64,000 nucleotides of DNA from Chimonanthus salicifolius (lineage: Eukaryota; Streptophyta; Magnoliopsida; Laurales; Calycanthaceae): the NCBI GenBank assembly GCA_013350335.1, contig CM023536.1, positions 14,079,520-14,143,519 on the forward strand, read 5' to 3'. The position numbers were made by a program, and so were the translations under genes. Shown piece after piece: positions 2,337 through 34,200 of this stretch (positions are counted from its first letter, which is position 1; the number at the start of each line of letters is the position of its first letter). Below the pieces are notes generated by a model that made no database searches, was not told the origin of the DNA, and saw only the letters and a program-made list of their open reading frames with translations.

Positions 2337-5300
2337 TGTAATATCCTGCCCCAGATTAGGCGTGTTTTAGTTTGATAATCCTATTTAACCAGTTAATCTC
2401 GAAGATTTTGGTTAGGGCTCCGAGGAAAGCCCAGGTTTGGCCCGATCTGAGCCTGAAAACTCAGTGATCCGGCTCGTCAAACTGGATGGGCATTTTGGTA
2501 ATTTACCACTTTTAGTTATTATTTTATGAATATTGTTGATATGTATATATTATTGGTAAATAATGTTCTCCTAAATAAAGTATTTGCATTTCTGATTTTA
2601 AAATGAATTTATTTTCAGAAAATGGCATTTAAATCCCGCCCGTCAAAACCCCGAAAGGGAGTATTAATTATTTTAAAGGGTTTTGAAAATGAAATAAAAT
2701 TTGAAATTAGTATTTTATGGTAGACCATTTTAAGAATGGTCTAGTTATTTCATTTCACCTCAAAATGATGTTTCTAAATTGTTTATTTTAACAATTGTTT
2801 ATTTAAGTAAATAGTGTAAATTTATGATTTTTATTTAAATAAATGGTTTTTAATAAGAGATAATTTCCAAAAATTTTATGGTGACCAAGGTTTTCAAAAC
2901 CCAACCTATCTGTAAGGTTGGATCAGGTTTTTGAGTTTTTAAATTATTACTTTTAGTTTAAAAATCAATTTTTATTAAAACCGGGACTTATCTGCAATTT
3001 GGAAACTGTTGAGGGACTAATATGCAACCAACAGAAAAACCTGCAGTTTACTGTTACGAGCGTCAGCGGCGTGCAGCGGCCTGCTCGACCCGATTTTCCG
3101 ACCAATGATTTCCCCGTCGTCCCGTCCCGTCCCATCGCATGCGCACCGGATTTCCCGACCAAAAACCTAAATAAACCGGCCTTCCCTATCGGTTTTGAAC
3201 TCCCAGCATCTCTTCTCCCTTCTTTCTCTTGCAGAAACCCAGCCGAGACCTTTAAGCTTCCATTTTTTTCAGTAACAGTAACTTAGAGGAATTTTTTTTC
3301 AAAAATCCGGATTTCAACCTAAGAATTCAATTCAAGGTAACCACTGCATTCCCCTTTCAATTTCGATCGGTTTTGAATCAAGAAATTTTGAATTTGGCTC
3401 CCTTTTCAATGAGAAAAATAATTTCAAAGTTTAGGAAAAATTCTAGGGTTCCTCGTATCAGTGAGCTTCTAGTGCTAAGATCGGATAACTTACTAAGTTT
3501 CAAAGCTCCAAACTCTCTCTATGGAAAAAGGACTCCCGGAGGAATCCATCGGACCGGTCAGATGTAAAAACCGAATACAGAAAATCCCCCATTTTCAAAT
3601 CCGTTTTTCACTGTTCCCGGCCGTTCACTGTCTGCAACAGACAGTGAACGGGAGGAAAAATAAGAAGAAGAAAAAAAAAATATTTTTATTTGATATTATT
3701 GTTGCTTGTGATTTTTAATGTTGGTTCCCATTGAAAAAAAAATGAATAAATGATTGAATAAATAAGTATTATTATTTTATTCAAAAAAAATATTATTTTG
3801 TTAGATTATGTGATGTGATGATTAGTACCCCTTTTTGTTAATTAAAATTGTATTAACCCTCTTCTCTTATTACTTATAGTGTAAATACTATTGTATCCGC
3901 TTCCAGGCCGACCCTATTGGTCAGGCACTGAGTGATTCACTTTCAGGCCGACGCTATATAGTCGGGCACTAAGTGATTCATTTTCAGGCCGACGCTATAT
4001 AGTCGGGCACTGAGTGACATCGAGGCCTACTCAAAATGTCAGATCTAGTCCTATCCAGAAGACAACCGAGAAGTGACCCGAGGATCTAGACCTAAGTCAA
4101 TAAGTCAATCTGGTCAATATCCAGAAGACAATATGAGTTTTGGACTGAACCCCTTTTTATTTATTAATATATTGTGGATTATGATAATTTAAAAAGGATA
4201 GAAACCCAGTAGGAGACTCAATTCCATATAGCTCGGATATTTTTGGAAAAACGTATGATTTCCAAATACTACGTATGTGTACGTATTTGTTATGTATGTT
4301 AATTGTGCACTTGTGTGTTGTTTGAATAGAGATCGCGTAAACCACACATCACGGTGAGGGAACTTAACTCTGCAAATTTTGTAAACGGGTTTTATAATGA
4401 GATAAATATTGAGCAATGAGTGGTTTCAGTTTTGATGAACCCACCCATGTGCCTATACATGATGCACTATGGTAAGAGTGCTGATATTGATTGTAATATT
4501 ACGATGTTGATCGTATGAGTATGTAAGACTGCTTCCACGTACTTGGGCTATTGAACCAATATCGGCCATATGAGAGATGATTTATGTCTATTGGACCATG
4601 GGAGAACCATGCTGTCGTCAGTTGCTGACTTGAGGGTGTCAGTATCGGCTAAGTCAAAGCCGGAGATGTACTTGCAATGATGTATTTTGACCGTGTCGGG
4701 ACTTAATACTAGTCTCAGCGTAGTCTGCAGGAGTTATGGTGGATAATGGCAGTGATTGATGATGTTGATATATTACTTAAGACTATGCTTATTGTTATCA
4801 AGCATGTGATATTATTGAACTGTTGCTAACCTGTTGTTTACTTAATTTGCATCGTTATATTTCCTTCTCTGGGCTAGTTAGCTCACACCACTCACCTTTC
4901 AGGAGATGAACCCGAGGAGGAGGACCCTCTCTTTCATGCGTAGGGTGGTTAAGGTGCGACGGTAGTTTGGGATTCCCATGAAGAGGGAATACCCTTATTT
5001 GTGTTTTCTGGTTCTTGGAACCTTTAGTTTTTTGTGAAGTACTGGTTGTGGTACTTAGTTCTTTAAAAACATTATTTTATCGAGACTACGACGTTGCTGT
5101 AGTCTTTTTGTTGTGACTTTGAATGATGAATCAATGGATGGTTTTGTTTGATGATATTATGATGTTGTTGATGTCTATTTTATGGGGTAGGCATATGGTA
5201 CATGTTTGAGTCCACATGATGGGATCATGTGTGACCCTTGGGCCCAACTGTTGATTCCGCCCAATTAGATTGCATATGCTTGTGGTTTAGTTTACTTATC

Positions 5301-5355: not shown

Positions 5356-7663
5356 AAGTACCACATCCGGTACTTTATAAAACCATGAGGTTCTAAGAAC
5401 CAGAAAGCACAAATCAGGGTATTCCCCTCAGGGGGAATCCCAAACTACCATCGTAACTTATCCATCCTAAGCCTGATAAAGAGGATTCTCCTCCTCGGGT
5501 TCATCTCCTGAAAGGTGAGTGAGGTGAGCTAAATAGCCCAGTGAAGGAAATATAACAATGCAATTTAAATAAATAACAGGTTAGCAATAAACAACAGTTC
5601 AATAATATCTCATACTTGATAACAATTAAACATAATCTCATGTAAAGCATCATCATCATTTTCATCTTTCGTCAATTACTGTTATCTTCCAACATAACGC
5701 CTGCCGACTACACTGAGACCTGTATTAAGTCCCGACACGGTCAAAATACATCCTTGCAAGTACATCTCCGGTCTAATTTAGCCGATACTGACACCCTCAA
5801 GTCAGCAACTGACGACACTCCTGGTCCACCCATGACCGAGTAGACGTAAACTATCTCCCATATGACCGATTTTGGTTCAATAGCCCAGGGTACGTGAAAG
5901 CAGTCTTACACATTCTTATGATCAACATCATAATATTCACAGTCATCATAAGCACTTTTACCACAGTGCATCATGTCTAGGCACATGAGTGGGTTCCTCA
6001 AAACTGAAACCACTCATTGCTCAAAACTCATCTTATAATAAAACTTGTTTACATATTCTGCAGAGTTAAGTTCCCTCACCGAAGATGTGTGGTTTACGCG
6101 GTCTCTGTTCAAACAAACAGACAAGTGCACAATCAATATACATAACAAGTACGTACACACAAGTAGTATTTGGAAATTATACGTTTTCCCAAAAATATCC
6201 AGGGTACATGGAATTGAGTCTCTTACTTGGTTTTAAACCTTTTTAAATTATCATAATCCACAATATAATAATAAATAAAAAGGGGCTCAGTCCAAAACTC
6301 ATATTGTCTTCTGGGCATTGACCAGATTGACTTATTGAGTTAGGTCTAGATCCTCGGGTCACTTCTCGGTTGTCTTCTGGATAGAACCAGATCTGACATT
6401 TTGAGTTAGGCCTCGAGGTCACTCAGTGCCCGACAAATATATCGTCGGCCTGGAAGTGAGATCACTCAGTGCCTGACCAATAGGGTCGGCCTGGAAGTTA
6501 CTACAATAGTATTTACACTATAGTAATAAGAGAAGAGGGTTAGTACAATTTTAATTAACAAAAAGGGGAACTGACATCACATCACATAATCCAATAATTT
6601 TTTTTAATAAAATAATACTATTTATTTATTCATTTATTTATTTATTTATTTCAATGTGAACTAACATCACAAATCACAAGCATCAACATAATCAAATAAA
6701 AATATTTTTTTCTTTTTTTCTTTTTTTCTTCTTCCTCCTTCCTTTACTGTCTGTAACAGACAGTGAACGGCCGAGAAAGCATGAAAAACGAATCCGAAAA
6801 CAGTGGATTTCCCGGATTCGATTTTCATATCTGACCGGTTCGATGAATTCCTCTGGGAGTCCTCTTTCCATAGGGAGAGGTTTGGAGTTTTGAAGCTCAC
6901 TGGACCATCCGATTTTAACACCGAAAGCTTCAGGGGAAAAGGAACCCATGGTTTTTCCTCAGATTTAAAACTGGTTTTTCTTACTCAAAACAGGGCCAAA
7001 ATTAGTTTTTCTTGATTCTAAACCACATAGAATTTGAAAAGGAATACAGTGGTTACCTTCAATAGAGTTCCTAGGCTGAAAATCCGATCTTTGAAAAACA
7101 GGGAAGAATAGAGGCTAAGGGTTGGCTTTAAAAATACCAGAGAGCACTGAGGGAGAGAGATAGAAAAATCTAAGGGAGTTTGATACTATTTACTTAATTA
7201 AACAAATGTTAAATAAAACAATTTAGAAGCCTTATTTTGGGGTGTCAAAGAATAAATAGACCATTCTTAAAATGATCTACCATAAACTACTTGTTTCAAA
7301 ATTTATCTCATTTCGAAAATCATTTAAAATAATTATTACTCTCTTTTGGAGTTTTGACGGGCAGATTTTAAATATCATTTTCTAAAAATAAATTCATTTT
7401 AAAATCAGAAATACAAATCCTTTATTAAGGAGAACATTATCATCCAACAATAATCATATAATAATATAATTTAAAAAAAAATAATAACTAGAAGCGGTAA
7501 ATTACCAAAATGCCCCTCCAGCTGGGCGAGCTGGATCACTGAGCTTTCGAGCTTGGATTGGGTCAAACCTGGGTTTTCCTTAAAGCCCTAACCGAAATCT
7601 TCGAGATTAACCGGTTAAACAAAGTTATTAAGCTAAAACACGCCTAATCTGAGGCAGGGTATT

Positions 7664-8610: not shown

Positions 8611-8618
8611 CTAATAAA
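8611..8618. repeat. Target site duplication, left (CTAATAAA)
   Basis: The eight bases before the MULE end GGGTCCCC are repeated exactly at 18606-18613 after the other end. Eight bases is at the short end of the 8-11 bp usual for Mutator-like elements. Confidence 0.85.
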
Positions 8619-9514
8619 GGGTCCCCATTTACACACCCGATTTTTCTGCCTCTACACACCCATTTCCGGGTGCGGGTGGCAAATTACCATTTTGCCCCCG
8701 CGTTCCCATTCGTTCAAACGAATGCTCAGTTCATTTCTCCATTCGTTCGAACGAATGGACGCATACCACCTCTGTTTTCATTCATTCGAACGAATTCCCA
8801 GTTCATTTCGGATTCGTTCGAATGAATACATGCATCCTGCCGAGATTTTGACTCATTCGAACAAATGCCCATGTGTAAAATCCATTCATTCGAACGAATT
8901 CCCCAGTGTAAATTCCATTCATTCGAATGAATGGGCAGAAGTTGTTCATTCGTTCGAATGAATCTATCCATTCATTCGAACGAATAAATCAGATGGGACT
9001 GGAAAATGACAATCCTTCGATCGAATGTCATTCATTCGAATGAATCAATCCATTCATTCGAACGAATGACATATAGACGTGCATTCATTTGAATGAATGG
9101 ATCATTCGTTCGAAAGAATGTATCAGAGAGGACTGGAAAATGACAGTCCTTCTCTCGAATGTCATTTGTTCGAATGAATTGAGTCATTCATTCGAATGAA
9201 TGCACGTCTATATGACATTCGTTCGAATGAATGACTCAATTCATTCAAACGAATGACATATAGACGTGCATTCATTTGAATGAATTGACTGATTCATTCG
9301 AACGAATGTATCAGAGAGGACTGGAAAATGACAGTCCTTCTCTCGAATGGCATTCGTTCGAATGAATCAAACCATTCATTCGAATGAATGCAAGTCTATA
9401 TGCCATTCGTTCGAATGAATGGGTTGATTCATTCGAACGAATGACGTATAAGTTGTCATTCATTCGAATGAATCAACCCATTCATTCGAATGAATGACAA
9501 CTTATATATATAAG
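8619..9514 (+). repeat. Left TIR made of TTCGAA palindromes
   Basis: After about 85 bases of unique terminal sequence the arm consists of more than twenty near-copies of an 18-base palindrome, type form CATTCATTCGAATGAATG or CATTCGTTCGAACGAATG, separated by 5-35 bases. Three times (near 8990, 9121 and 9309) a second motif is interposed: GGACTGGAAAATGACAGTCC, itself a hairpin. The arm ends at a palindromic TATA tract, CTTATATATATAAG (9501-9514). The right arm mirrors the order of modules. Confidence 0.9.
9501..9514 (+). promoter_or_regulatory. Candidate TATA box for the + strand MULE gene
   Basis: CTTATATATATAAG sits at the inner end of the left TIR, 287 bases before the ATG at 9801, followed by a CT-rich leader with ACCCTAAACC-like motifs. 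The same tract occurs at the inner end of the right TIR. MULEs usually carry promoters in their TIRs; the assignment is inferred from position. Confidence 0.5.
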
Positions 9515-9800
9515 CCGCTAATTCATTCGATCGAATCAATCGATCGAATCTAAACCCTAACCTCTCCTCCCCTTTCTTCGAAACCCTAAACCGAAGCTTT
9601 CCCTCCCTTTTCCTCTTCCTCTCCCTCTCCCTCGTAAATCCCCCATTTATTCGAACCTCTCCCCATTCATTCGAACCAATCACCCCCATTCATTCGAACC
9701 AATCACACATATTCATTCGAACCAATCACCCTACACCCTTTCCATTTTAATTTTTCCCTCTCCCTCTTTCTTCCTCTCTTTCCAAAAATACACCATGTAA

Positions 9801-11577
9801 ATGACATCTTCAAGTTCCAAAAGGAAAGCAAACACAACAAGGAGAGGGAAGAAACAAAAGAAAGACACGGCATTTGACCCGACGCATTTCATATCTTCTA
9901 AAGCCTCGACCTTCTACCAAGAAGATTTTTGCGCACGATCGTATATTTTTGGTAAAATCGTCGACCTTTCATTTTTCACACAATTTGGTTTGAAAATCGA
10001 ATCTTATTTTGAAGAAATGGGTTAGGGTTCATTTTTGTCATTAAAATGTGACATGTACCCTAGTTTAGTAAAAGAATTTTATGCGAATGTAGAAAAAATG
10101 GATGATGAGACAGTTAAGACAACCGTCTGAGGCCAGGAAATTGTGATTACATGGGAAAGGTTGAATTACCTATATAATTTCCCAAAATACGCCATTAGAA
10201 GGTATGATTGTCGTACATGGATCACTGATGTTGAGGGTTCGATGTTTTGGTAGCCCTCAACGAGATGTGTGGGAGGACAAATATTATAGAGAAGAAGACC
10301 CCCCCACTGATCATGCTTACATTAGAAGCACGAATCATCCATCAAATAATTGTCAATTGCCTTTTTCCTAGAAAAGGGCATTCTAGTGTGACATGGTTCG
10401 AAGTGTTTCTTATTTGGTGCATCATGCATGGGAAATAAATCTCCCTCTCCCATATCATCATCAGTCACATGCGCGCCTGCCGGAAGACCAGAAGATGTAG
10501 TCTTCCGTACGGTGGAATCCCTCTTCACCCTATGATAAAGTATCTATAGATCGCTATGATTATTTTAATGAGTCAACTTTGAAGAAGATGGGATTCCACC
10601 TCGACAGAGCTAGTAAGAAATGGCTCTCCAAAGTTGTCGAGGCACCTCAAGTTCAGGTTCACAGTTCACTTGAGCCATCTGAGGCGCGTGCGGCACTTGA
10701 GCCACCTGGGCCATCTGAGGGCAGTGAGGCACGAGACTCACGTGAGGCAGGGACTCCTCCGACTATTGCAGCAGTTGATACGCGGTAGATTCTTGCTAGC
10801 ATTTCTGCTTTAAAGGGGAAGATGAAGCAGAGATATGATCAGCAGGTGCAGAGATATGATCAGCTTACCGCAAGGGTGGATGTTATGCAGAGCCAGATTA
10901 TAGATACTTTGCGGTTGACAGTTCTTTTAGCACAAACGAGGGGGATAACAACATTCCTATCTACAGAACCAGATGGTACTGTACGAGCAAGGGTATCACC
11001 CGAGTTTGCAGGCGCAGTTCTTCCCCCTGTTCGTCCATCTGGAGGGGTAGCTGAACGAGCAGGAGCATCATCTGGCACCCCTGCTCTTACTGAACGAGCA
11101 GAAACATCATTTGGCACCCTTGCTCGTACTAAACGAGCAAGAGCAGCATTGGGGGAATCTGGTAGTGTTAGTCGATTTGGAGCATCTGTTCAGCCAAGCG
11201 GATCAGCTGGTTCTGGGCCCCGTTCTGTGATGGTTGGATTAGCAGTAGCTTCTGGTCCATTGCCTCGTCCGACTGGAGTTGCAGCATCTTCTCGCCCCAT
11301 TACACCTCAGAGTGGATCAGCTGGTACTGGCCCCCGTTCTGTGTTGACGAGAGTTGCAGTAGCTTCACGCCCCCTTCCTCGTTCGACTGCAGTTATTCCA
11401 TTCGTGCGACCTCAGTTTGCACCTCCTGCTTCTGCACCTATCACCATAGCTCTGATTGTTGCACCAGTTCATGCATCTGCTCCTTCTGCATTTGCCTCCA
11501 CTGGTCCACCTGCTGCACCACCTGTTGCACCTCCTGCTGCACCTTCTACCTCTGATCCGAATATTATTTGTATTTGA
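9801..11577 (+). pseudogene. Decayed accessory ORF of the MULE
   Basis: The likely start is ATG at 9801 (TSSSSKRKANTTRRGKK, a basic nuclear-localisation-like run). The same frame continues to 10253 but holds TAG at 10023, TGA at 10128 and TAG at 10251. The segment FYANVEK ... RLNYLYNFPKY resembles the 'putative plant transposon protein' domain that occurs in many plant repeat ORFs (resemblance from memory, not searched). The frame then shifts; the C-terminal part (10579-11577, one TAG at 10786) has a coiled-coil-like stretch (MKQRYDQQVQRYDQLTARVD) and a long Pro/Ala/Ser/Gly-rich tail ending at 11575. Its role is unknown; it could be a captured gene or a second MULE protein. Confidence 0.6.
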
Positions 11578-12176
11578 TATACTATTGTTTTTTTTTTATT
11601 GACATGTAAAAGAGATGTAAATTTCATATGTTGAATGAACATGTTATATTATTTATCAGATTTTCATTGTGAATTGGGTCGTTACTTTAAACATGTTATT
11701 TTGAACTGAAATAGCATTTAAATTTTATATTTCATTTGATTTTCATACTCTCCATAAATCAACTTCATTTTCCACTTAAAATGAACACATTGAAGCTGAC
11801 AAGAGCATTCAAGAGCATTCCTAACTTAAATATCAGAATAAGTCTACTTCAATCAGAAGCCGTTCAAGACTATGCTTAATATAAAAGAGAGTACATTCAC
11901 GAGCATTCCTAACTTAAAATGAATACATTTTCCATTTAAAATGAATACATTGACACTTATATCTTCACTTCATTGATTCCACCATTGCATGAAATCGTCA
12001 TTATCTCTAATATCACCAGACCACTGCATAACATTTAAAAAAATCACATTAGAATATATGGAAAAGTTATATGTCGATTGGTAAATACATATAAGATCTT
12101 TAAGGAATGAACTTACTTCGGTCATTTCTGTAGAGTTATATGTTGAATCGTCACCAAAGTTGTAAAATCCATTATC
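11578..12176. other. Spacer between the two convergent MULE genes
   Basis: AT-rich, no ORF. Holds short direct repeats (AAGAGCATTCCTAACTTAAA-type, near 11805-11835 and 11900-11925). Probably the 3' untranslated regions of both MULE genes. Confidence 0.5.
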
Positions 12177-13931
12177 CTATGAAAAACTCGCTGTTTGTGA
12201 TTTATGGAAATCACATACATTATAATCAGCATTTAAATCTACACTCGTAGATGCCTGTGAAGAATGTAGCCTATTCGGACAAGTTCTCCTCGTATGACCA
12301 GTATTTTTGCATAACCCACATCTTCTTCCATTTAGTTGATTCTCTACAATATTAAATGCAGAAGGATCTCGACGTGTAAATGTTTGGCCCTGTGTAGAAT
12401 TCCTTGAACCTGGATGACGTCCTCTAGAATATTGCATAATAGAGTGACTGATTGGCTTATCATGGATGGCAAGATTTTGGAGATGATTTAGGACCACCTC
12501 TTGATCATACGAAGACAAATGTCCATATTTGTTCTTAATACCTTCAAAGTGTACGACTAATACATCCCTAGGCCTTTGCCTTACAACATTTAAGTCGTCC
12601 AATGAAATTAAGTCGATTCTCCATTGTGGGTGTATATCATCCAAATGTAATTTGTCCATCCATTGCATTTTGTGCGCACACGGTAGGCCCATTGAAGCTG
12701 TAAACTCTTCCGTACAAATGGGTGACAATGATCAGTTCATAAACATATCATATTGATTGTAAACCTTATTCATTGCGAAATGAGAAACTTTGCCGTTCAA
12801 TTCATCAAAGAAAGGAATAGACACATCACATGCAAACTGAATCTTCTCATCCTCAAGTTGAATATTGAACTCTTCAAATTGATTTTCAATGACATGGGCT
12901 ATGTTTCTTCGGACAACATCTAGATCACCTGTAGATGTAGATATATAACTTTTCAGAATAGCATGCGCACCCTCAACCGTTGAAGTAGCTCGATTCTTAA
13001 AATGTAAACTCCATCCGATCCATGCCTTGACGAATTGTTTTCTAAGTGGGATCCACGTCCTTGTTAAGTAGTTCACTGCTTGCGAATCATCTCTGAAATT
13101 TTGTTTGAATGCCTCAAACGCTGTATTGAATGCTTTTTCTGTTGGGGATCAATCAGGTCATTCCATTCGGTAAAAAATGCATTCCAATCTTCGATTTTCT
13201 TAAACATAGCTTTACAACAAGCAACAATATTCTTGTTGATGTGCCAAGAGCACAAAATATGTACAACATTAGGGAACTCCAAATCAATGACATTCTTTAA
13301 AACCAATTCCCTATCAGTCAAAAGAACTAGTCGACCATGCTCCACTCCAAAGATCTTTTTAAACATCTGTAATGTCCATACATAATCTTCAAATTTCTCA
13401 TTTCGTAGAAATGCAAAGCATGAGTAGAAGTTCTTATTGAAACTTGTTATACCAACAATATGAAGCAATGGCATATGATATTTGTTGGTTTTGTACGTGC
13501 AATCCATTAGAAGAACATTATGATAGCTCTTGGTAAGAAAAATGGACTTTGGATGTGCAAAAAATAGATGGGACAAATGACCATCATTGTCATAGTCAAG
13601 AAAATATTGGTAACCACCTTCTTAAAGATCATCTATCAAAGCTTGAATTGTAGTTCGACCCCTTAGTTACTCTTTCCGAAGCGCAAAACAAAAGTTGTAC
13701 AAATCACCAGCTGATATTCCAATATCTGGATTTTGCTTTGTAAGGGTCGTCAAAATTTGTCGTCGTGGTATATTGTAACTCCTCATTTCAATGATCATTT
13801 TTTTTCTCAGCATCTGAAAAACATCTTATACTTAGATGACCTAATAATAACTCTGATATATCATGATTGTGATCCAAATTCTTTATGGTCAACTTCCATG
13901 ACCCATCAACAATCTGTTTACCTTTCACTTG

Positions 13932-16795
13932 TGATGTGAATTTTAAATTACTCGCAAGCGTACGAACCAGTTTATAGTATAGAATATGAGTGCGAGATCG
14001 TACCCAAGGGAAATCTACAAAATAAAAAAAAATAGCACTATTTAAAAATAATGTGATTTAAGGAAATAGTTTTCTAAAACATTTAGTTATCATCTTAATT
14101 TAGAACAATAAATTGTTTTAGTGAATTTTTGAGAAAAAGAAAAATAAATCAAGAATAAATAATTTTTTTTTTACATAATCTACAATGGAATCGGGTCAAA
14201 CATCGAAGTGCCATGTTATCCGATTTAAAAACAAAAAACATGGCCTAGACTATGAAATATTCTGAAATTATTAAATATAATTCAAGTTTCTTATTTAATA
14301 AAATTCTAATTAAAATAATCATTAAATCAGATTTTTCAAATCAAGCCTTAGGCTTGAGCGGGTTTTAAACTTGTGTTTCCCCAATTCTAAAACAACTGTT
14401 CTTGATAAGAACCTTAGACTGGAGAGACGGCAAGTCCCACTGATCCTAAAAGGGGTTCCACTTTTCCTTGAAAAATCCTCAAATTAATTTGTTTCATAAA
14501 GTTCTTAAAAAGAATTAAAATTAAATTGAAAACCATCATTATTTAATATTTAATAATCATACATCTAAACAAACCGCCATGGATTTTATTAAAAATTTGG
14601 AAATGAAATACAATTCTTTTGGACTTTACATAAAAATAAAAAATTAAAATAACTTATAAGAAATTATTTATTTTTCTCTGTCTTTCGTCGTCCAACTTCA
14701 GCCTTCAATGTCTTGCCTGGTTCAACCTTCAATGGATCCAAAGCCTTGAATTTATAGAAGAGAGGGGATGAGATAAGAGTCCTTCAAACTCAACCGGGAT
14801 AAGACCCATTTTAAATTCAAATTCAGCCAGGCTGTGCTTTGTCCTTCTTCATCTCCTTATCCCTTCTATCTTTGAAACTCAGCTTCCAACGGCAGCTGAT
14901 TCTTATCCTTTATCTTCTCTTCAATCTGTTAATTCTATCTCTTGCAAAACCTTCCTTCCATCGACAGATAACTATCCCCTTTCTCTTCTCTATCTTTGAA
15001 ACTCAGCTGTTATCGATTAATCTTATCCTTCCTCATATTTTTGAAACCCAGCTGCTATCTTATCCAGCAGCTACACGGCAGCCCTCTATTTTGATTCCTT
15101 CTCTGCTTATCCCAGCTAAAAATCAAATTCTTCTTTATCCTCTGATCTTCCTTTCTCAGTTTCAATCGGCTAATCTTATCCTTATCTTATCTTCCTTCTT
15201 TCACTGATCTGAAATCAATTTTATCAGCAGCTAATTCTTTCCTAGTTGCTCGGTTAACAGCTGCTGCACGGCAGTTCTGCTGTCTTCTTTATCTTCCTCT
15301 CTGCTTGCTACTGCCAGTGCTCTATTTCTGCAATAAAAAATCGCAACTGCTGCTCTCTGTTTTTCCTCTGCTAGTTGCCGTCGGTCACTGCCCCTCAACT
15401 GGCTGCTCGTTGGAACCTTGCTGCTGCCTCTGTGTACAATGCTGGCTGCCCAGACTGTTGTTTCGCTGTTTGCAAACAGTCTCTGCTTTCTTCCCAGCTA
15501 GCTGCGATGGAACCTTGCTGCAGCTCTGCTTCAGCCGGCTGCCGGCTGTGCAGACTGCTTTCCATCGTCATCTCTTCTCAGCTGGCTGTTGTTCATGTGG
15601 GCAACAGCTCGGGCGGAACAGATCTAGTCACGGCCGGCCGCTGCTATGCTCATCTCAGCTGGTTGCTGTGTATGGCTTCAATCTCTGCTTGGACTGCCAT
15701 CTTTGTTCTCCTTCAGCTGCCCTCTTCTCAGCTGGCTGTTGTTCATGTGGGCAACAACTCGGGCGGAACAGATCTGGTCAAGGCCGGCCGCTGCTATGCT
15801 CATCTCAGCTGGTTGCTGTGTATGGCTTCAATCTCTGCTCGGACTGCCATCTCTGTTCTCCTTCAGCTGCCCTCTTCTCAGCTGGCTGCTCGGGCGGAAT
15901 CGATCTGCTGCTGCAGTGCTGGTAGTTGTTCTTGTGTTGCTCTTGTTGCTTTCTTCCTTCATTTCGTCTCTGCTAGCTGCTCATGTGGGCAGCATACTGA
16001 TGTCGGTTGCCTCTTCTCTACCTCTACTCCTTCCTCAGCTGCTGCTCGTCATCTCTTCTTGGCCGCTCTTCTTCTATTTGCTGGCTGCCGTTCATCTCAA
16101 ATGGCTGCCCGGGCGGAACCCTGCTGCAACGTCGATCTGGCTGCGCCTCCTTCTTCTTCTCAGCTGCTACTTGTTTCAGCCCTTGAGATCACAGCTGCTG
16201 TCCACCGTTGCTGCTGTGTTCGCTGCTGCTCGCTCGGACTGCTGTTTTGCACTCAGTTGCTGCCTCTTCAGCTAGACATCGCTGGCTTCAGCTTTGCTTG
16301 CTGCCCGTGTCAGCTGTTCGGACTCTACTTCAGTCGGCTGCCTTCTTTTCTCCATCGCTGGCTGACCATGAGTCCCCGTAACCTGTAACCAGAGAAAGAA
16401 AAGAGTAGAAAAGAAATAGAAATATAAAAAGAAATGGTAATAATTTATTTAGGCTTTCCTTCATGTGCCGGGCACCCGATCGACGGTAAGTGAGAAGGGT
16501 TGGTAAATGAAACTCGACATTCACTCGAAATTGGACAAATTAATTAATGAGTGTAGAAGGTTATAGGTTCTGAGACCCAACTGGTTTAACCAACTTGACC
16601 TGACCATTCTGAAGGTGACGTCGACCGTATTTTTTCTTAGCCATTTTTTTCATTTTTATTTTCTTTTTTTTTTTGTATTTTTCAAAATAAACTGTAAAAC
16701 TAAAAATAACATTTTAAATCTATCTAATATTTATAAAATAAGGACTAATTAATCTAATATTAAAGGGTAAAATTGTAATTTTACGGTGTTCATCA
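13932..16795. mobile_element. Solo LTR (2,864 bp) inside the MULE transposase
   Basis: Starts TGATGTGAATTTTAAATTAC and ends GGTGTTCATCA, so both ends show a TGATG/CATCA inverted pair. The flanks are ACTTG at 13927-13931 and again at 16796-16800, a 5-bp target duplication. No internal retroviral genes and no repeat of one end at the other, hence a solo LTR left by recombination. The opening ACTCGCAAGCGTACGAACC is a pattern I associate with long LTRs of plant Ty3/gypsy elements (from memory). The middle is CT- and GCTG-rich; the long ORF read there is low complexity and not believed. Confidence 0.8.
15572..15880 (+). repeat. 150-bp tandem repeat in the solo LTR
   Basis: CTCTTCTCAGCTGGCTG recurs at 15572, 15722 and 15872, so two complete 150-bp units and the start of a third stand head to tail. 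Units 1 and 2 differ at only a handful of bases. Confidence 0.9.
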
Positions 16796-17025
16796 ACTTG
16801 AAAAGGACAATTGCATTGGCGAGAGTATGCTTTCCTTTTTCTCGCATCATCTTCCACGCTAATCGTGCTACGGTATTTACCTCCTCAATCGCAGCCAATG
16901 ACTACTTTCTTTTCCTTATTACATGACCTCTTTATGATAGTTACAAATCCTTTTTCATAAGCGATATTCTTAACATAATTTATAAGCTCCTCATGACTTT
17001 CAAAACATCCCTCAACAAACTCCAT

Positions 17026-17710
17026 GCCACTTGAGGATTAAAAACTACCACTAAAACACTAATAATAATGAGATAAGAGAGAGAGAGTTACCTCCGATTT
17101 GAGATAAGAGATCCAGACAATAGCTTGAGAGAGACAACTTCGAACCGATATAAGAGAGAAGGGATTGAAAAGGGGGTTTAAGGGTTGAAAATTTAAATGG
17201 GTTTCAAGGGTTTGGGATTGAAATGGGGGTTGAAAAATGGGATTTTAAGGAGAAATCTTTGAAGAAGGTGGTTCAAAATGGGGTTTAAGAATTTGGGATT
17301 GAAATGGAGTTCAAGGGTTTGGGATTGAAAAGGGGTTCAAGGGTTTGGGATTGAAAAGGGGGTTCAAAATGGAGTTCAAAATGGGGTTTTAAGGAGAAAT
17401 CTTTGAAGAAGGTGGTTCAAAATGGGGTTTATGGGTTTCGGATTGAAATGGGGTTCAAGGGTTTCAGATTGAAAAGGGGCTTGAAAATGGAGTTTTAAGG
17501 AGAACTCTTTGAAGAAGGTGGTCTCAAATGGGGTTTAAGGGTTTGGGATAGAAATGGGGTTCAAGGGTTTGGGATTGAAAAGGGAGTTGAAAATGGGGTT
17601 TAAGGGAGAAGAGATTCAGAAAAGAGTTCAAGGGCAAAGGGAAAGGGAGAGCGAAACCACGGTTTAGGGTTTAGAATGTAATAAAACGAGTGGAATTTCG
17701 TGGATGCTCA
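17026..17710 (-). promoter_or_regulatory. 5' leader of the MULE transposase with a minisatellite
   Basis: Between the right TIR and the transposase ATG. It is G-rich on the + strand; from 17160 to 17640 it is built of imperfect 22-45 base units such as GGGTTTGGGATTGAAATGGG and GGAGAAATCTTTGAAGAAGG. The inner end has AAACCCTAAACC on minus, as does the leader of the other MULE gene. Confidence 0.6.
17160..17640. repeat. G-rich minisatellite
   Basis: At least ten imperfect copies of GGTTCAAGGGTTTGGGATTG-type units, mixed with four copies of a longer unit containing AAGGAGAAATCTTTGAAG. No coding sense. Confidence 0.75.
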
Positions 17711-17724
17711 CTTATATATATAAG
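17711..17724 (-). promoter_or_regulatory. Candidate TATA box for the MULE transposase
   Basis: CTTATATATATAAG, identical to the tract at 9501-9514, lies at the inner end of the right TIR, about 690 bases upstream of the transposase ATG on minus. Inferred from position and symmetry. Confidence 0.45.
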
Positions 17725-18605
17725 TTGTCATTCGTTCGAATGAATAGATTGATTCATTGAATGAATGACAACTTATATGTCATTCGTTCGAATGAATCAA
17801 CCCATTCATTCGAACGAATGACATATAGACTTGCATTCATTCGAATAAATGGCTTGATTCATTCGAACGAATGCCATTCGAGAGAAGGACTGTCATTTTC
17901 CAGTCCTCTCTGATACATTCGTTCGAATGAATCAGTCAATTCATTCGAATGAATGCACGTCTATATGTCATTCGTTCGAATGAATTGAGCCATTCATTCG
18001 AACGAATGATATATAGACGTACATTCATTCGAATGAATTGAGCCATTCATTCGAACGAATGACATTCGAGAGAAGGACTGTCATTTTCCAGTCCTCTCTG
18101 ATACATTCGTTCGAATGAATGATCAATTTATTCGAATGAATGCACGTCTATGTGCCATTCGTTCGAATGAATGGATTGATTCATTCGAACGAATGACATT
18201 TGATCGAAGGACTGTCATTTTCCAGTCCCCTCTGATTCATTCGTTCGAATGAATGGATAGATTTATTCGAACAAATGAACAACTTTTGCCCATTCATTCG
18301 AATGAATGGAATTTATACTGGGGAATTCGTTCGAATGAATGGATTTTACACATGGGCATTCGTTCGAATGAGTCAAAATCTCGGCAGGATGCATGTATTC
18401 ATTCGAACGAATCCGAAATGAACTAGGAATTCATTCGAATGAATGAAAACAGAGGGGGTATGCGTCCATTCGTTCGAACGAATGGAGAAATGAACTGAGC
18501 ATTCGTTCGAACGAATGAGAACGCGGGGGTAAAATGGAAATTTGCCACCCTCACCCGAAAACGGGTGTATAGAGGCAGAAAAACCGAGTGTGTAAATGGA
18601 GACCC
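17711..18605 (-). repeat. Right TIR made of TTCGAA palindromes
   Basis: Reverse-complement counterpart of 8619-9514, 895 bases, with the same order of modules. The interposed hairpin motif appears near 17885, 18075 and 18205 as GGACTGTCATTTTCCAGTCC. It ends with TGGAGACCC at 18605. Confidence 0.9.
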
Positions 18606-18613
18606 CTAATAAA
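18606..18613. repeat. Target site duplication, right (CTAATAAA)
   Basis: Exact copy of 8611-8618, immediately after the MULE end. Confidence 0.85.
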
Positions 18614-31200: not shown

Positions 31201-34200
31201 ATTGATAAATTATTGGCATTTCTCAGTACCATTATATATATATCATCAAACCTTAAATGACTTTATTAATGTCTATATATTGAAGTTTGATCAATTATTC
31301 ATTGATCTTTGTTGATAAACTTTTAAAAAAATATTTTTTTCTCTTAAGCAAAAGAACATGAACATTATATAGTATAAAATTTAGTCATCCTTTCAATATA
31401 TATACAATTAGAGTTAGAAAAAAACCTAAATAAGGCGGACTAAATTAATCTAATTTGTGAACTAAACCGAATCAACATTTAACTGTTTGATGAATCAAAT
31501 CAGGAATTGTTCAAAAGAACTAGTTTGTAGTTCAAGACCAGTTAGAACGAATCAGGTAACTAAGTTTTAACCTTTGTTCAGAGAGAGAGAGAGAGGTCCC
31601 ATAGAAAGGAAATTGATTTTTACTCTAGGGATTTTGATTATGGTACACTTTTGAATACTTTTTTTTTTTTTTTATTTCAATTTTACCCACTTCTGCCCCG
31701 TTTTTCTTCTTTCCAGCTTTTCCCGATCTCCCTCTTTCCCATCGCAGCAGAATGGGAAACTCCTCAGCAGATCTTCATCTCGACCTCTCTCCCTCTCTTC
31801 TTGGATCTCTCCCTCTCTCTCTCGTCCTTCATCTCTCCCTCTCGTCCTTCATCTCTCTAAATGAAAGAGTGAAGGACCTTAAGATCTCAATAACAAAGCT
31901 TTATGGCTGTATCAAATGTCAGTACAAGTGTTACTGTTCTTGATCTCTTTGGGAAGGATAAATCTGTGACACCACCAAGAAGACTTTCAATTCCTGCCAA
32001 TTCTAGCTTCAGCCCCCTGCCGATACCTGAGAGGATTACTCCAATTTCAGGAACTAGACCAATGAAATCAACTATTGATCAAGGCAGAAGTGATACACCA
32101 ATGACAGAATTGTCAAAAGGAATTTTACTGTTCTGTCATCAGCTTCTTATTTTACTGATGGGGAGAGTTGAGACAAGCATCTGTGATTGAGAGTTCTCTG
32201 AGCAGAGAGGAGAGAGAGGTGGAGACGATGAGAAAAGGAGTTTCTGTGTAATGCTACAGAGGAAGTTAACTAATATCCCTGGGAAGGTACTGACAGGTAA
32301 CAGAGAGAGTCATCTCCTCTTATCTCTGAATAGATATAAGAAGAAGAAACGAGTAGCAGAAGAAGAAGATGATGGAAGACTGCTCTGTAACGTGAGCTCT
32401 CGTCTGATCCGGAAGTATCAAATGCTTCAGGTTGAAGATGCTGCAGAGAGACTGAGCGTTAAACAGAAGATGATGGAGGAAGATGCTTGCAGACGCTTCA
32501 GCTTCAGGTCGAAGATGATAGAGGAAGGTACTTGTAGAGAGACTGAGATGAGAACCCAAATCCTGCAGAGATATGAAGGACAAGAGAGACAGAGGGAGAG
32601 ATGCAGGACGAGAGAGAGAGAGAGATATGAAGGACAAGAGAGAGAGGTAGAGACGAAGATCTGAGTGAGGTGGGAAAGAGGAAGACCGAGAAAATGGGAA
32701 AGCTGGAAAGTGAAGGAAAACGAGGCACGAGTGGGTAAAATTGGAATTTAAAAAAAGTATTCAGAAGTAGTGTACCATAATCAAAATCACTGGTGTAAAA
32801 ATCAATTCCCCCATAGAAATTGTCATTCACTCAATTTGATACTCATTTGAGTGTTCTCCTTTGGGGTAGAGATCCACGAGAAAATATGCTGTTCATACAG
32901 CCCTAATAACTTTGTGGCCCACAAATCAAGGGTTGGGATGATCAAGTGATGGTGAGACTTTGCTATCTCCACAGCCCTTGAATCCATGTAGATCTCTGTG
33001 ACAGATCTATGGAACTTGTCAAGGATGGGCCTGCTAGACAACTTTGTGTGCATTCTTAAAGTGTGTATTATGTGTCCTGGTGTGTGTAAACTATGCTCCT
33101 GCACACATACACAATCTTATCCTTTCCAATTGCAATTAAAAAAAAAAGGTTATCTTTTCTCATCTTATTTTCTTGATTTGGTGAACATTCAGAAATTCTT
33201 GATGCAATGCATTGCTTAATGCTGACTGTTTTTAGCATTACATTAAATGCCGGTCCAAATGTTGGTTTTTATGTTCTACTCTTTCGGCAAAATTATAATT
33301 GTCTTTAAAAAAGTGAGGGCACGTTCTTGTTTGTGAAAATAATAACATAATTAACATTCTTAGGGTACCATATCATTTGACTGTTTTATCTATTTAAGAA
33401 ATTAGGATTGATAATCTATTTTCTGAAATCTAATTGTCTTTCGTTTTCTCAGCAAGATTGACTTACCTAGAAAAAAAGACTAAAAGAGTGTTTCTGACAG
33501 AAGGGTGACCTTTTTTTAGGCAAAACAAATATCATTAAAAGATCAAAAGAAGACAAAACATGGTCGGACTAACCTGGGACACCAAAGCCTAGCAGGCGTA
33601 CAAGATCTAACAAAACAAAGAAAGGAGGTATCAAACTGCAAAAGCAGAAACAAAAAGACTGAAAACACTATCAGGACAATCATAAAAACCAGCCAGCTCC
33701 AGCAAATGGGAAAACCCCCAAGACCCCATCCAGCATGACTACCAGCAAAATAACTCATGAAAGGTCTCAGAGATTTCCTCCATTTCTTGACTGCATGGTG
33801 ACTTTGCTATAGTTGTGGTATTATGTAATCTGATTCCCCAAAAGTCCAAATTCCTATCTGTCCTTATATCCTAATCCAGTTTCCTACTTTATAATTCCTT
33901 TTCCATTGAAGGACATGTCTGGTTTGATTGGAAAGATTCGAGCTATACAACCATCCTTAGAAGTATGATCATGGCTTGGGTCCTAATATTTTCTCACATG
34001 TTTGAGGGCCTTTTCCATACATTTTATTGGCTGGGTTTCGTTGGTTGGGACCTGGTTTAGGATAGACTGATTCAAGAGGCTCTTATATGTTAAGGGATTG
34101 CAAGAGTGTAGACTGACAAATCAGATTTTGATAGTGTTTTGTGGTGGTTTGATTGTGGTATCATGGTTGTTAAAAATCTTACGATACACGATTCGTATCT

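What the first reader, a model, noticed from the sequence alone, without database searches (positions are those of the whole stretch)
8619..18605. A 10 kb MULE whose TIRs are palindrome arrays
The ends match for 0.9 kb, but unlike ordinary unique-sequence TIRs each arm is built from more than twenty copies of an 18-base palindrome centred on TTCGAA. Every unit is its own inverted repeat, so each arm can fold locally as well as pair with the other arm. Mutator TIRs usually carry one or a few transposase sites; an array of identical palindromes suggests many binding sites per end, or ends that grew by unit amplification. Each unit also has a central CpG, giving a dense methylation target in AT-rich DNA. 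I do not know a described family with this design.
Basis: partly seen in the sequence, partly recalled or inferred. Interest (0 to 1): 0.8.

Follow-up and report, generated by a model that had tools for sequence, protein, structure and literature searches.

The report
Mobile element with palindrome-array ends
A plant cut-and-paste transposon family carries, at both ends, long arrays of one short near-palindrome at fixed spacings; this is a family trait rather than a local accident, and the arrays may be landing pads for the element's own proteins.

Summary
8619-18605 is a Mutator-like element (MULE): ~0.9-kb terminal inverted repeats, 8-bp target duplication, MULE transposase domain (E=1.2e-24). 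Its arms carry 25 and 24 copies of ATTCRTTCGAAYGAAT (55 hits in the window, all inside the element; 0.05 expected). It is not a local accident: the exact 16-mer has 19,284 sites in the host genome (reversed control 0), and 20 of 20 further ends read carry units, the first 88-89 bp from the tip. The outer spacing 33-39-32 is kept in 22 of 24 older-type arms; inner modules vary in number. A young branch (arms 98.8-99.9% identical within a copy, 8-9 bp duplications, open transposase frame in 3 of 3 copies read) has 401 of 447 units identical and about 28 versus 36 units in its two arms. Corrections: in the window copy only 13 of 50 units are perfect palindromes; a 2.9-kb LTR-like insert inflates the length; MULEs with arrays of short repeats in their TIRs ("foldback" type) are described. 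Most likely the units are many binding sites for an element protein, working like CACTA subterminal repeats. Constraint and helical phasing support this only moderately; no binding was shown. New variant of a known kind.

The parts
8611..8618 (.). left target-site duplication CTAATAAA
8619..9516 (+). left terminal inverted repeat arm (898 bp)
   Evidence: aligned to the right arm; 94% identity
8619..8706 (+). tip outside the array, with TACACACCCG at 8630-8639 and TACACACCCA at 8653-8662
   Evidence: 4 matches with up to 1 mismatch in the window, all at the element's ends; 0.91 expected, 3 of 100 shuffles reach 4
8708..9495 (+). left array, 25 units of ATTCRTTCGAAYGAAT (<=2 mismatches), spacing 33,39,32,39,33,33,31 then 22/31/60 modules
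9665..9726 (+). three near-units ATTCATTCGAACCAAT at 23-bp spacing in the leader of ORF1 (four ATTCATTCGAATCACA at the corresponding place in the young copy L034)
9801..11577 (+). ORF1, broken in this copy; the relative in L013 is open for 638 aa and matches Pfam PF20167 Transposase_32 (E=2.4e-25)
12177..13931 (-). MULE transposase gene, downstream part, broken frames; PF10551 E=1.2e-24 in 13073-13621
13932..16795 (.). 2,864-bp insertion with TG...CA ends and a 5-bp duplication ACTTG: LTR-like; splits the transposase gene
   Evidence: absent from all 14 of the 17 compared stretches that cover this place; boundaries
16796..17060 (-). upstream part of the transposase gene (N-terminal AFT/FAR1-type finger region, by position relative to L015); far boundary approximate
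17711..18605 (-). right terminal inverted repeat arm, with 24 units at 17730-18516
18606..18613 (.). right target-site duplication CTAATAAA

Best explanation
A plant MULE family of the 'foldback' build. Shown: each end has a ~88-bp tip, an outer set of near-palindromic units at fixed spacing, and an inner array that varies by modules of several units; relatives encode a MULE transposase (AFT/FAR1-type finger at the N terminus) and a second protein with the Transposase_32 domain; a young branch has dispersed copies with open transposase frames. Inferred: the tips are cut; each palindromic unit is a two-half site bound by a dimer of an element protein (transposase or ORF1 product), so that the arrays load many copies of it at both ends, help to bring the ends together, and may sense CpG methylation at the central TTCGAA. 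It would work like the subterminal repeats of CACTA elements bound by TNPA, or the repeat arrays of the active mosquito MULE Muta1.
For: Units at 20 of 20 further ends, first unit 88-89 bp from the tip, 33/38-40/31-33 spacing in 18 of 20. 33-39-32 in 22 of 24 arms of 12 older-type elements, 34-38-32 in one; the last arm, L021 left, is interrupted after its second unit (some of the 12 are allelic or duplicated). In 20 young arms 2 of 280 non-CpG unit columns vary against 29 variants in 439 spacer columns; stratified by base composition, units against all other columns, p=0.004. 401 of 447 units identical in 7 young copies. Higher identity in units than outside in 15 of 15 comparisons of 6 end types (the comparisons are not independent). 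The strongest periodicity of unit positions between 6 and 20 bp is 10.3-10.5 bp, close to the helical repeat, in 9 of 10 arms tried. Transposase domains; D218 and D281 nearly invariant and E395 invariant among 25 sequences (that these are the catalytic residues is inferred). Best PDB fold match ISCth4 transposase, E=7.4e-08. Perfect 8-9 bp TSDs in 10 of 10 young copies.
Against: No binding data. Constraint weakens when base composition is controlled: older type, A/T columns only, 0.026 in units against 0.047 elsewhere, p=0.043, where the uncorrected test gave 1/10001. Recent decay at flanking CpGs whose consensus is CG (49 of 283 cells TG/CA) is not much above that at the central CpG (29 of 279). 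Margins between types can be small (window vs young 0.87 vs 0.84). The phasing null that respects repeated modules gives p 0.010-0.42, below 0.05 in 3 of 10 arms. Ends with very few units exist (4 in the 1.2 kb read at L045 and L054; a ~353-bp element, L047, with 5 in all), so long arrays are not needed to be an element. The ORF1 fold could not be predicted (pLDDT 39).
Confidence: 0.6

Rival explanations
1. The arrays are a passive by-product: palindromes and repeated modules slip and recombine during replication and repair, so arms lengthen without any binding function; only the tip matters.
For: Arms of one young copy differ by whole modules; arms fold strongly (z -23.2 and -35.3), which could promote slippage; ends with few units exist; composition accounts for much of the unit/spacer contrast; recent decay at central and flanking CpGs is not very different.
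Against: The outer units hold their spacing while inner ones vary in number; in the 401 identical young units both flanking CpGs of the older consensus unit are CA/TG while the central CpG is kept.
Confidence: 0.2
2. The units are promoter or enhancer sites (for a host factor or an element protein) driving the two inward-facing genes from the two arms; their role is transcription, not pairing of ends.
For: ORF1 reads inward from the left arm and the transposase from the right; 3-4 further near-units sit in the ORF1 leader; MULE TIRs are known to hold promoters (PMC3310237, abstract).
Against: Short derivatives with only ~0.4-0.5 kb between the arrays keep dozens of units (56 in the 2.5-kb L069, 63 in the 2.8-kb L070, both arms together), which a pure promoter role does not require.
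Confidence: 0.15
3. The arrays mainly shape silencing: hairpin transcripts from the arms make siRNA and the dense CpGs make the arms a methylation target; they are handles for host control rather than element machinery.
For: CpG observed/expected is 1.55 and 1.69 in the window arms against 0.62 inside and 0.53-0.69 in the flanks; strong foldback.
Against: High CpG o/e argues against long heavy methylation of the arms; selection on the element should not favour a silencing target (inference).
Confidence: 0.05

Closest known systems
Muta1 and related Aedes aegypti MULEs (PMC5225508, passages read)
   Same: MULE with 8-9 bp TSD; TIR made of a 10-bp palindromic terminal motif plus 9 copies of a 12-bp subterminal tandem repeat; called a type-2 foldback element by its authors; derivatives carry variable numbers of repeats; Muta1 is active
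   Different: Animal MULE; 12-bp tandem repeats in a 145-bp TIR, not 24-36 near-palindromes in a ~0.9-1.3-kb arm; one transposase gene
Tm1, Meloidogyne Mutator/foldback family (PMC3169594, passages read)
   Same: 9-bp TSD; composite TIRs with variable numbers of ~14-bp repeats; arms of one element differ in length; MULE-type transposase
   Different: Nematode, Phantom-like transposase; tandem repeats; asymmetric 7-bp end motifs
MuTAnT of Medicago, and FARE of Arabidopsis as cited there (PMC4486113, passages read; the FARE paper is not held)
   Same: Plant MULE/foldback elements with modular TIRs; FARE1 is said to carry long palindromic repeats on both ends; AutoMuTAnT transposase is Jittery-like, 9-nt TSD
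   Different: MuTAnT targets TA microsatellites and has a mean TIR of 47 bp; no array of one short palindromic unit is described in the passages read
Tandem-TIR MULEs of tomato, maize, rice, Arabidopsis (PMC3310237, abstract and discussion read)
   Same: Plant MULEs with amplified TIR sequence, suggested to raise recognition by transposase
   Different: Whole or nearly whole TIRs are duplicated, not a 16-bp unit
CACTA elements En/Spm and soybean Tgmt* (PMC2613891, passages and section 7 read)
   Same: Works-like comparison: reiterated subterminal motif forming palindromes (2 in the left border, 12 in the right), unequal numbers at the two ends, a DNA-binding protein of TNPA type, possible methylation control
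   Different: Different superfamily: CACTA ends, 3-bp TSD, different transposase
Tetris of Drosophila virilis (PMC4079207, abstract and passages read)
   Same: Foldback element placed by its authors in the Mutator superfamily; internal tandem repeats in its TIRs
   Different: Apparently non-autonomous; ~220-bp repeats that also form satellite-like arrays

Membership tests
Mutator-like elements (MULE superfamily) | MULE (PF10551) DDE transposase | tested here: met
   E=1.2e-24 in the window, 2.2e-26 in an open young copy; D218, D281, E395 conserved; best PDB fold match ISCth4 transposase (its IS256-family label is recalled)
Mutator-like elements (MULE superfamily) | 8-11 bp target-site duplication | tested here: met
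   10 of 10 young copies perfect, 8 or 9 bp; of 12 older copies 10 perfect (one a run of A), 2 with one mismatch (the 12 include allelic or duplicated insertions)
Mutator-like elements (MULE superfamily) | Mobility: dispersed copies with the same ends | tested here: met
   19 older-type elements (20 pairs listed, one counted twice) and 11 young ones paired by position
Foldback-type MULE (type-2 foldback) | Long composite TIRs holding arrays of short repeats, variable in number | tested here: met
   13-27 units per arm in 12 older-type elements, 27-37 in young arms, fewer in short elements; arms of one copy unequal
Jittery / FAR1-type plant MULE group | FAR1-type N-terminal finger, CCHC or SWIM C terminus; phylogenetic placement | tested here: inconclusive
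   FAR1 scores 22.4 and 26.5 bits, under the 28.1 cut-off; the related AFT finger 34.5 and 26.8, over its 21.6 cut-off; C-terminal zinc fingers below cut-off. No transposase tree was made
FARE (Arabidopsis foldback) | Sequence relation to FARE TIRs or its ORF | not testable with these tools
   No FARE sequence at hand; paper not held
CACTA (En/Spm) | CACTA tips and 3-bp TSD | tested here: not met
   Ends GGGTC or GGGAGCAC, TSD 8-9 bp
Satellite DNA | Unit arrays outside mobile elements | tested here: inconclusive
   The 5 groups of sites behind the first 100 listed hits look like elements or parts of them, but the list covers only the start of C1; the spaced-pair count did not complete

The most novel reading that the evidence does not exclude
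A two-protein MULE: the transposase recognises the tips while the Transposase_32 protein of ORF1 (a domain reported also in an extra ORF of an Athila retrotransposon) binds the palindromic array as a dimer on one face of the helix, an independent invention inside the Mutator superfamily of the TNPD/TNPA division of labour of CACTA elements; the CpG at the centre of the units makes each end a many-site methylation switch, and the unit sequence drifts in concert within each lineage.
Probability: 0.2. Interest if true: 0.8.

Novelty: new variant of a known kind. Interest (0 to 1): 0.55.

Why it matters
It is unclear what the repeat arrays at the ends of foldback-type MULEs do. Here one plant genome holds older elements whose ends range from a handful to more than twenty units, and a young set of near-identical copies with open transposase frames and near-uniform arrays. 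That makes the question testable: does unit number set binding, end pairing and silencing? The young unit ATTCATTCGAATGAAT is a ready-made probe. If the ORF1 protein proves to be the array binder, it would give a function to a domain that Pfam lists only as 'Putative plant transposon protein'.

Tried and rejected
Free satellite or local accident: not favoured, but not excluded genome-wide. Heat-shock element reading of the TTC/GAA repeats: rejected by eye, since TTCGAA lacks the 2-base gap of the recalled nGAAnnTTCn consensus. Simple CpG decay as sole cause of the R/Y variation: disfavoured, because the central CpG of the same units is kept at family level, though recent decay rates at the two kinds of CpG are not far apart (29 of 279 against 49 of 283 cells). 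Uncorrected unit-versus-spacer test: replaced by composition-stratified tests, which weaken it. Phasing with a free-jitter null gave p below 0.01 in all four arms tried; the fairer null that moves each spacing class together gave 0.010-0.42 in ten arms, chosen by me from more than fifty held. Transposase relatives in viral contigs and genome contigs: none, as expected of collections of viral, bacterial and archaeal sequence. ORF1 homologue search: 7,992 candidates scored, none significant, probably flooded by low-complexity words. ORF1 structure: pLDDT 39, discarded. Host identity: a small heat-shock gene beside L034 matches many flowering plants at up to 81% among the 120 listed; the largest contigs number about 11; species not established. 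The four exact unit strings occur in no paper of the held library. The FARE paper is not held.
Full report
Observation. Sequence 8619-18605 is bounded by GGGTC...GACCC and flanked by CTAATAAA on both sides, and the first ~897 bases of one end match the reverse complement of the other (94%). ATTCRTTCGAAYGAAT is found 55 times in the window with at most two mismatches, always inside the element; 0.05 are expected. Spacings run 33, 39, 32, 39, 33, 33, 31 from the tip and then in 22/31/60 modules. A ~420-bp part of the left arm matches its own reverse complement at 83%, and the arm folds with z = -23.2.

What it is. The interior carries a MULE transposase gene on the minus strand, broken here (PF10551, E=1.2e-24), and a broken ORF1 on the plus strand. 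Of 17 other stretches compared, 14 cover 13932-16795 and all 14 lack that 2.9-kb segment; it duplicates ACTTG and runs TG...CA, that is LTR-like. Nine of 19 older-type and 8 of 11 young elements measure 7.2-7.8 kb. In relatives, ORF1 is open for 638 aa (L013) and matches Transposase_32, PF20167, E=2.4e-25; the transposase of L015 also has an AFT-type finger, E=2.6e-8, and a FAR1 match below cut-off. A protein search with the L015 transposase found 80 relatives; the named ones are mostly FAR1-like or MULE proteins of flowering plants, the best full-length ones 47-48% identical, with some from fungi and an oomycete lower down.

Genome-wide. The genome has 852.6 Mb in 591 contigs. The left arm gave 196 matches with 40 of 2,954 candidates scored, the 88-bp tip 40 matches with 40 of 1,108 scored, the young arm 227 matches with 40 of 2,992 scored: lower bounds. 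The exact unit has 19,284 sites, the reversed control none. By position the listed arms form 19 older-type elements (one search lists 20 pairs, but 11,278 and 11,739 bp are one element; 27 arms unpaired) and 11 young ones (42 arms, 20 unpaired). Only the best candidates are scored, so many partners are simply not listed: of 15 unpaired young arms probed at the expected distance, 9 show the partner tip and 6 do not.

Units per end. I read 20 of the 22 ends listed that I did not yet hold, 1.2 kb each. All 20 carry units, the first 89 bp (88 in one) from the tip; 18 of 20 keep 33, 38-40, 31-33. The reads hold 4 to 36 units with up to three mismatches; in short elements a read reaches the other arm: L040 is ~816 bp with 4 and 3 units, L047 ~353 bp with 5 in all, and L050 probably includes part of its other arm. 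In 12 older-type elements arms hold 13-27 units, and the two arms can differ widely (13 and 26 in L014, 15 and 25 in L011); 33-39-32 is found in 22 of 24 arms, 34-38-32 in one; the last, L021 left, is interrupted after its second unit. Some of the 12 are not independent: L013 is the other haplotype of the C6 copy, L011 and L017 share flanks, L015 and L016 share flanks in opposite orientation. Related, more divergent elements exist (L029, L030, L031, L032).

The young branch. L034 (C1:2773667-2781355) and nine further copies have arms 98.8-99.9% identical within a copy and TSDs of 8-9 bp in 10 of 10. In seven full-length copies 401 of 447 units are the same 16-mer; one arm has 27-28 units and the other 35-37, the difference being essentially two 4-unit modules, so growth is by modules. 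The transposase frame is open for 735 codons, 714 from the first methionine, in 3 of 3 copies read and has one stop in L034. The branch differs from the window type in its tip (GGGAGCAC) and outer spacing (33, 18, 32, 18, 32), while the transposase DNA is 92% identical.

Is the array constrained? In 29 older-type arms (9 of 38 rows dropped before the count: duplicate, partial or divergent) diversity at non-CpG sites is 0.042 in units, 0.117 in spacers and 0.130 in the tip, permutation p = 1/10001. But units are A/T-rich there; with A/T columns only it is 0.026 against 0.047, p = 0.043. In 20 young arms 2 of 280 unit columns vary against 29 variants in 439 spacer columns; stratified by base, p = 0.004. 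The central CpG is CG in 239 of 279 cells and TG/CA in 29; flanking steps whose consensus is CG are CG in 228 of 283 and TG/CA in 49 (summed), so recent decay differs only modestly. At family level, however, half of the 20 flanking steps of the ten consensus units, and all of them in the 401 identical young units, are CA or TG while the centre is CG. Unit positions show their strongest periodicity between 6 and 20 bp at 10.3-10.5 bp in 9 of 10 arms tried; a null that keeps the module structure gives p 0.010-0.42, below 0.05 in the two window arms and L042. I call this moderate evidence for binding on one face of the helix; the arms are related, so these are not independent tests.

How it may work. 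Shown: anatomy, mobility, open frames. Inferred: cutting at the tips; units as dimer sites loaded by an element protein; module gain as a neutral or favoured route of growth; the central CpG as a possible switch. The closest working model is the CACTA pair TNPD/TNPA, where a DNA-binding protein recognises reiterated subterminal motifs; in soybean Tgmt* these form palindromes in unequal numbers at the two ends (PMC2613891, passages and section 7). Here the second protein could be ORF1; nothing yet shows that it binds DNA. PF20167 is also reported in an extra ORF of a sunflower Athila element (PMC11728184, one passage).

What is known. MULEs with arrays of short repeats in long TIRs are described: 10 of 12 long-TIR Aedes families and active Muta1 (PMC5225508), Tm1 (PMC3169594); among plants MuTAnT, whose paper cites FARE1 as carrying long palindromic repeats on both ends (PMC4486113); passages read in each. 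So the kind is known. Not found in nine searches of the held open-access library are the unit itself, arrays of 24-36 near-palindromes at fixed spacing with higher-order palindromes, the fixed outer set, and a young branch with nearly uniform units. Most subscription papers and Repbase could not be searched, so an entry for this family may exist.

Noticed in passing
window 3900-4017 and 6415-6498: Two short tandem arrays (41-43 bp units) that read as reverse complements of each other about 2.5 kb apart: perhaps another transposon with tandem-repeat ends beside this one.
   Followed up: no
window 13932-16795: LTR-like insertion (TG...CA, 5-bp duplication ACTTG) that splits the transposase gene of this copy; described only.
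   Followed up: partly
L013 (C529:101351-108954) versus C6:12473261-12484324: Reverse-complement flanks: most likely the other haplotype of the same insertion, differing by an internal ~3.4-kb segment.
   Followed up: partly
L013:4308-6221 and L034:2613-4094: A Transposase_32 (PF20167) protein inside a MULE; the same domain is reported in an extra ORF of an Athila retrotransposon (PMC11728184, passage).
   Followed up: partly
L034:66-572: A small heat-shock protein gene lies about 0.6 kb from the tip of a young copy.
   Followed up: no
L030:2250-2710: Compact ~0.45-kb element that looks like one long inverted repeat with variant units such as GTTCGTTCGAATGAAT and ATTCATTCGAACGAAC (boundaries by eye).
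   Followed up: no
L021, C7:22656773-22657145: The left arm is interrupted after its second unit by roughly 0.4 kb.
   Followed up: no
window 31787-31858 and 32567-32658: Two tandem arrays about 0.7 kb apart that look like reverse complements of each other, perhaps the ends of a further short element.
   Followed up: no
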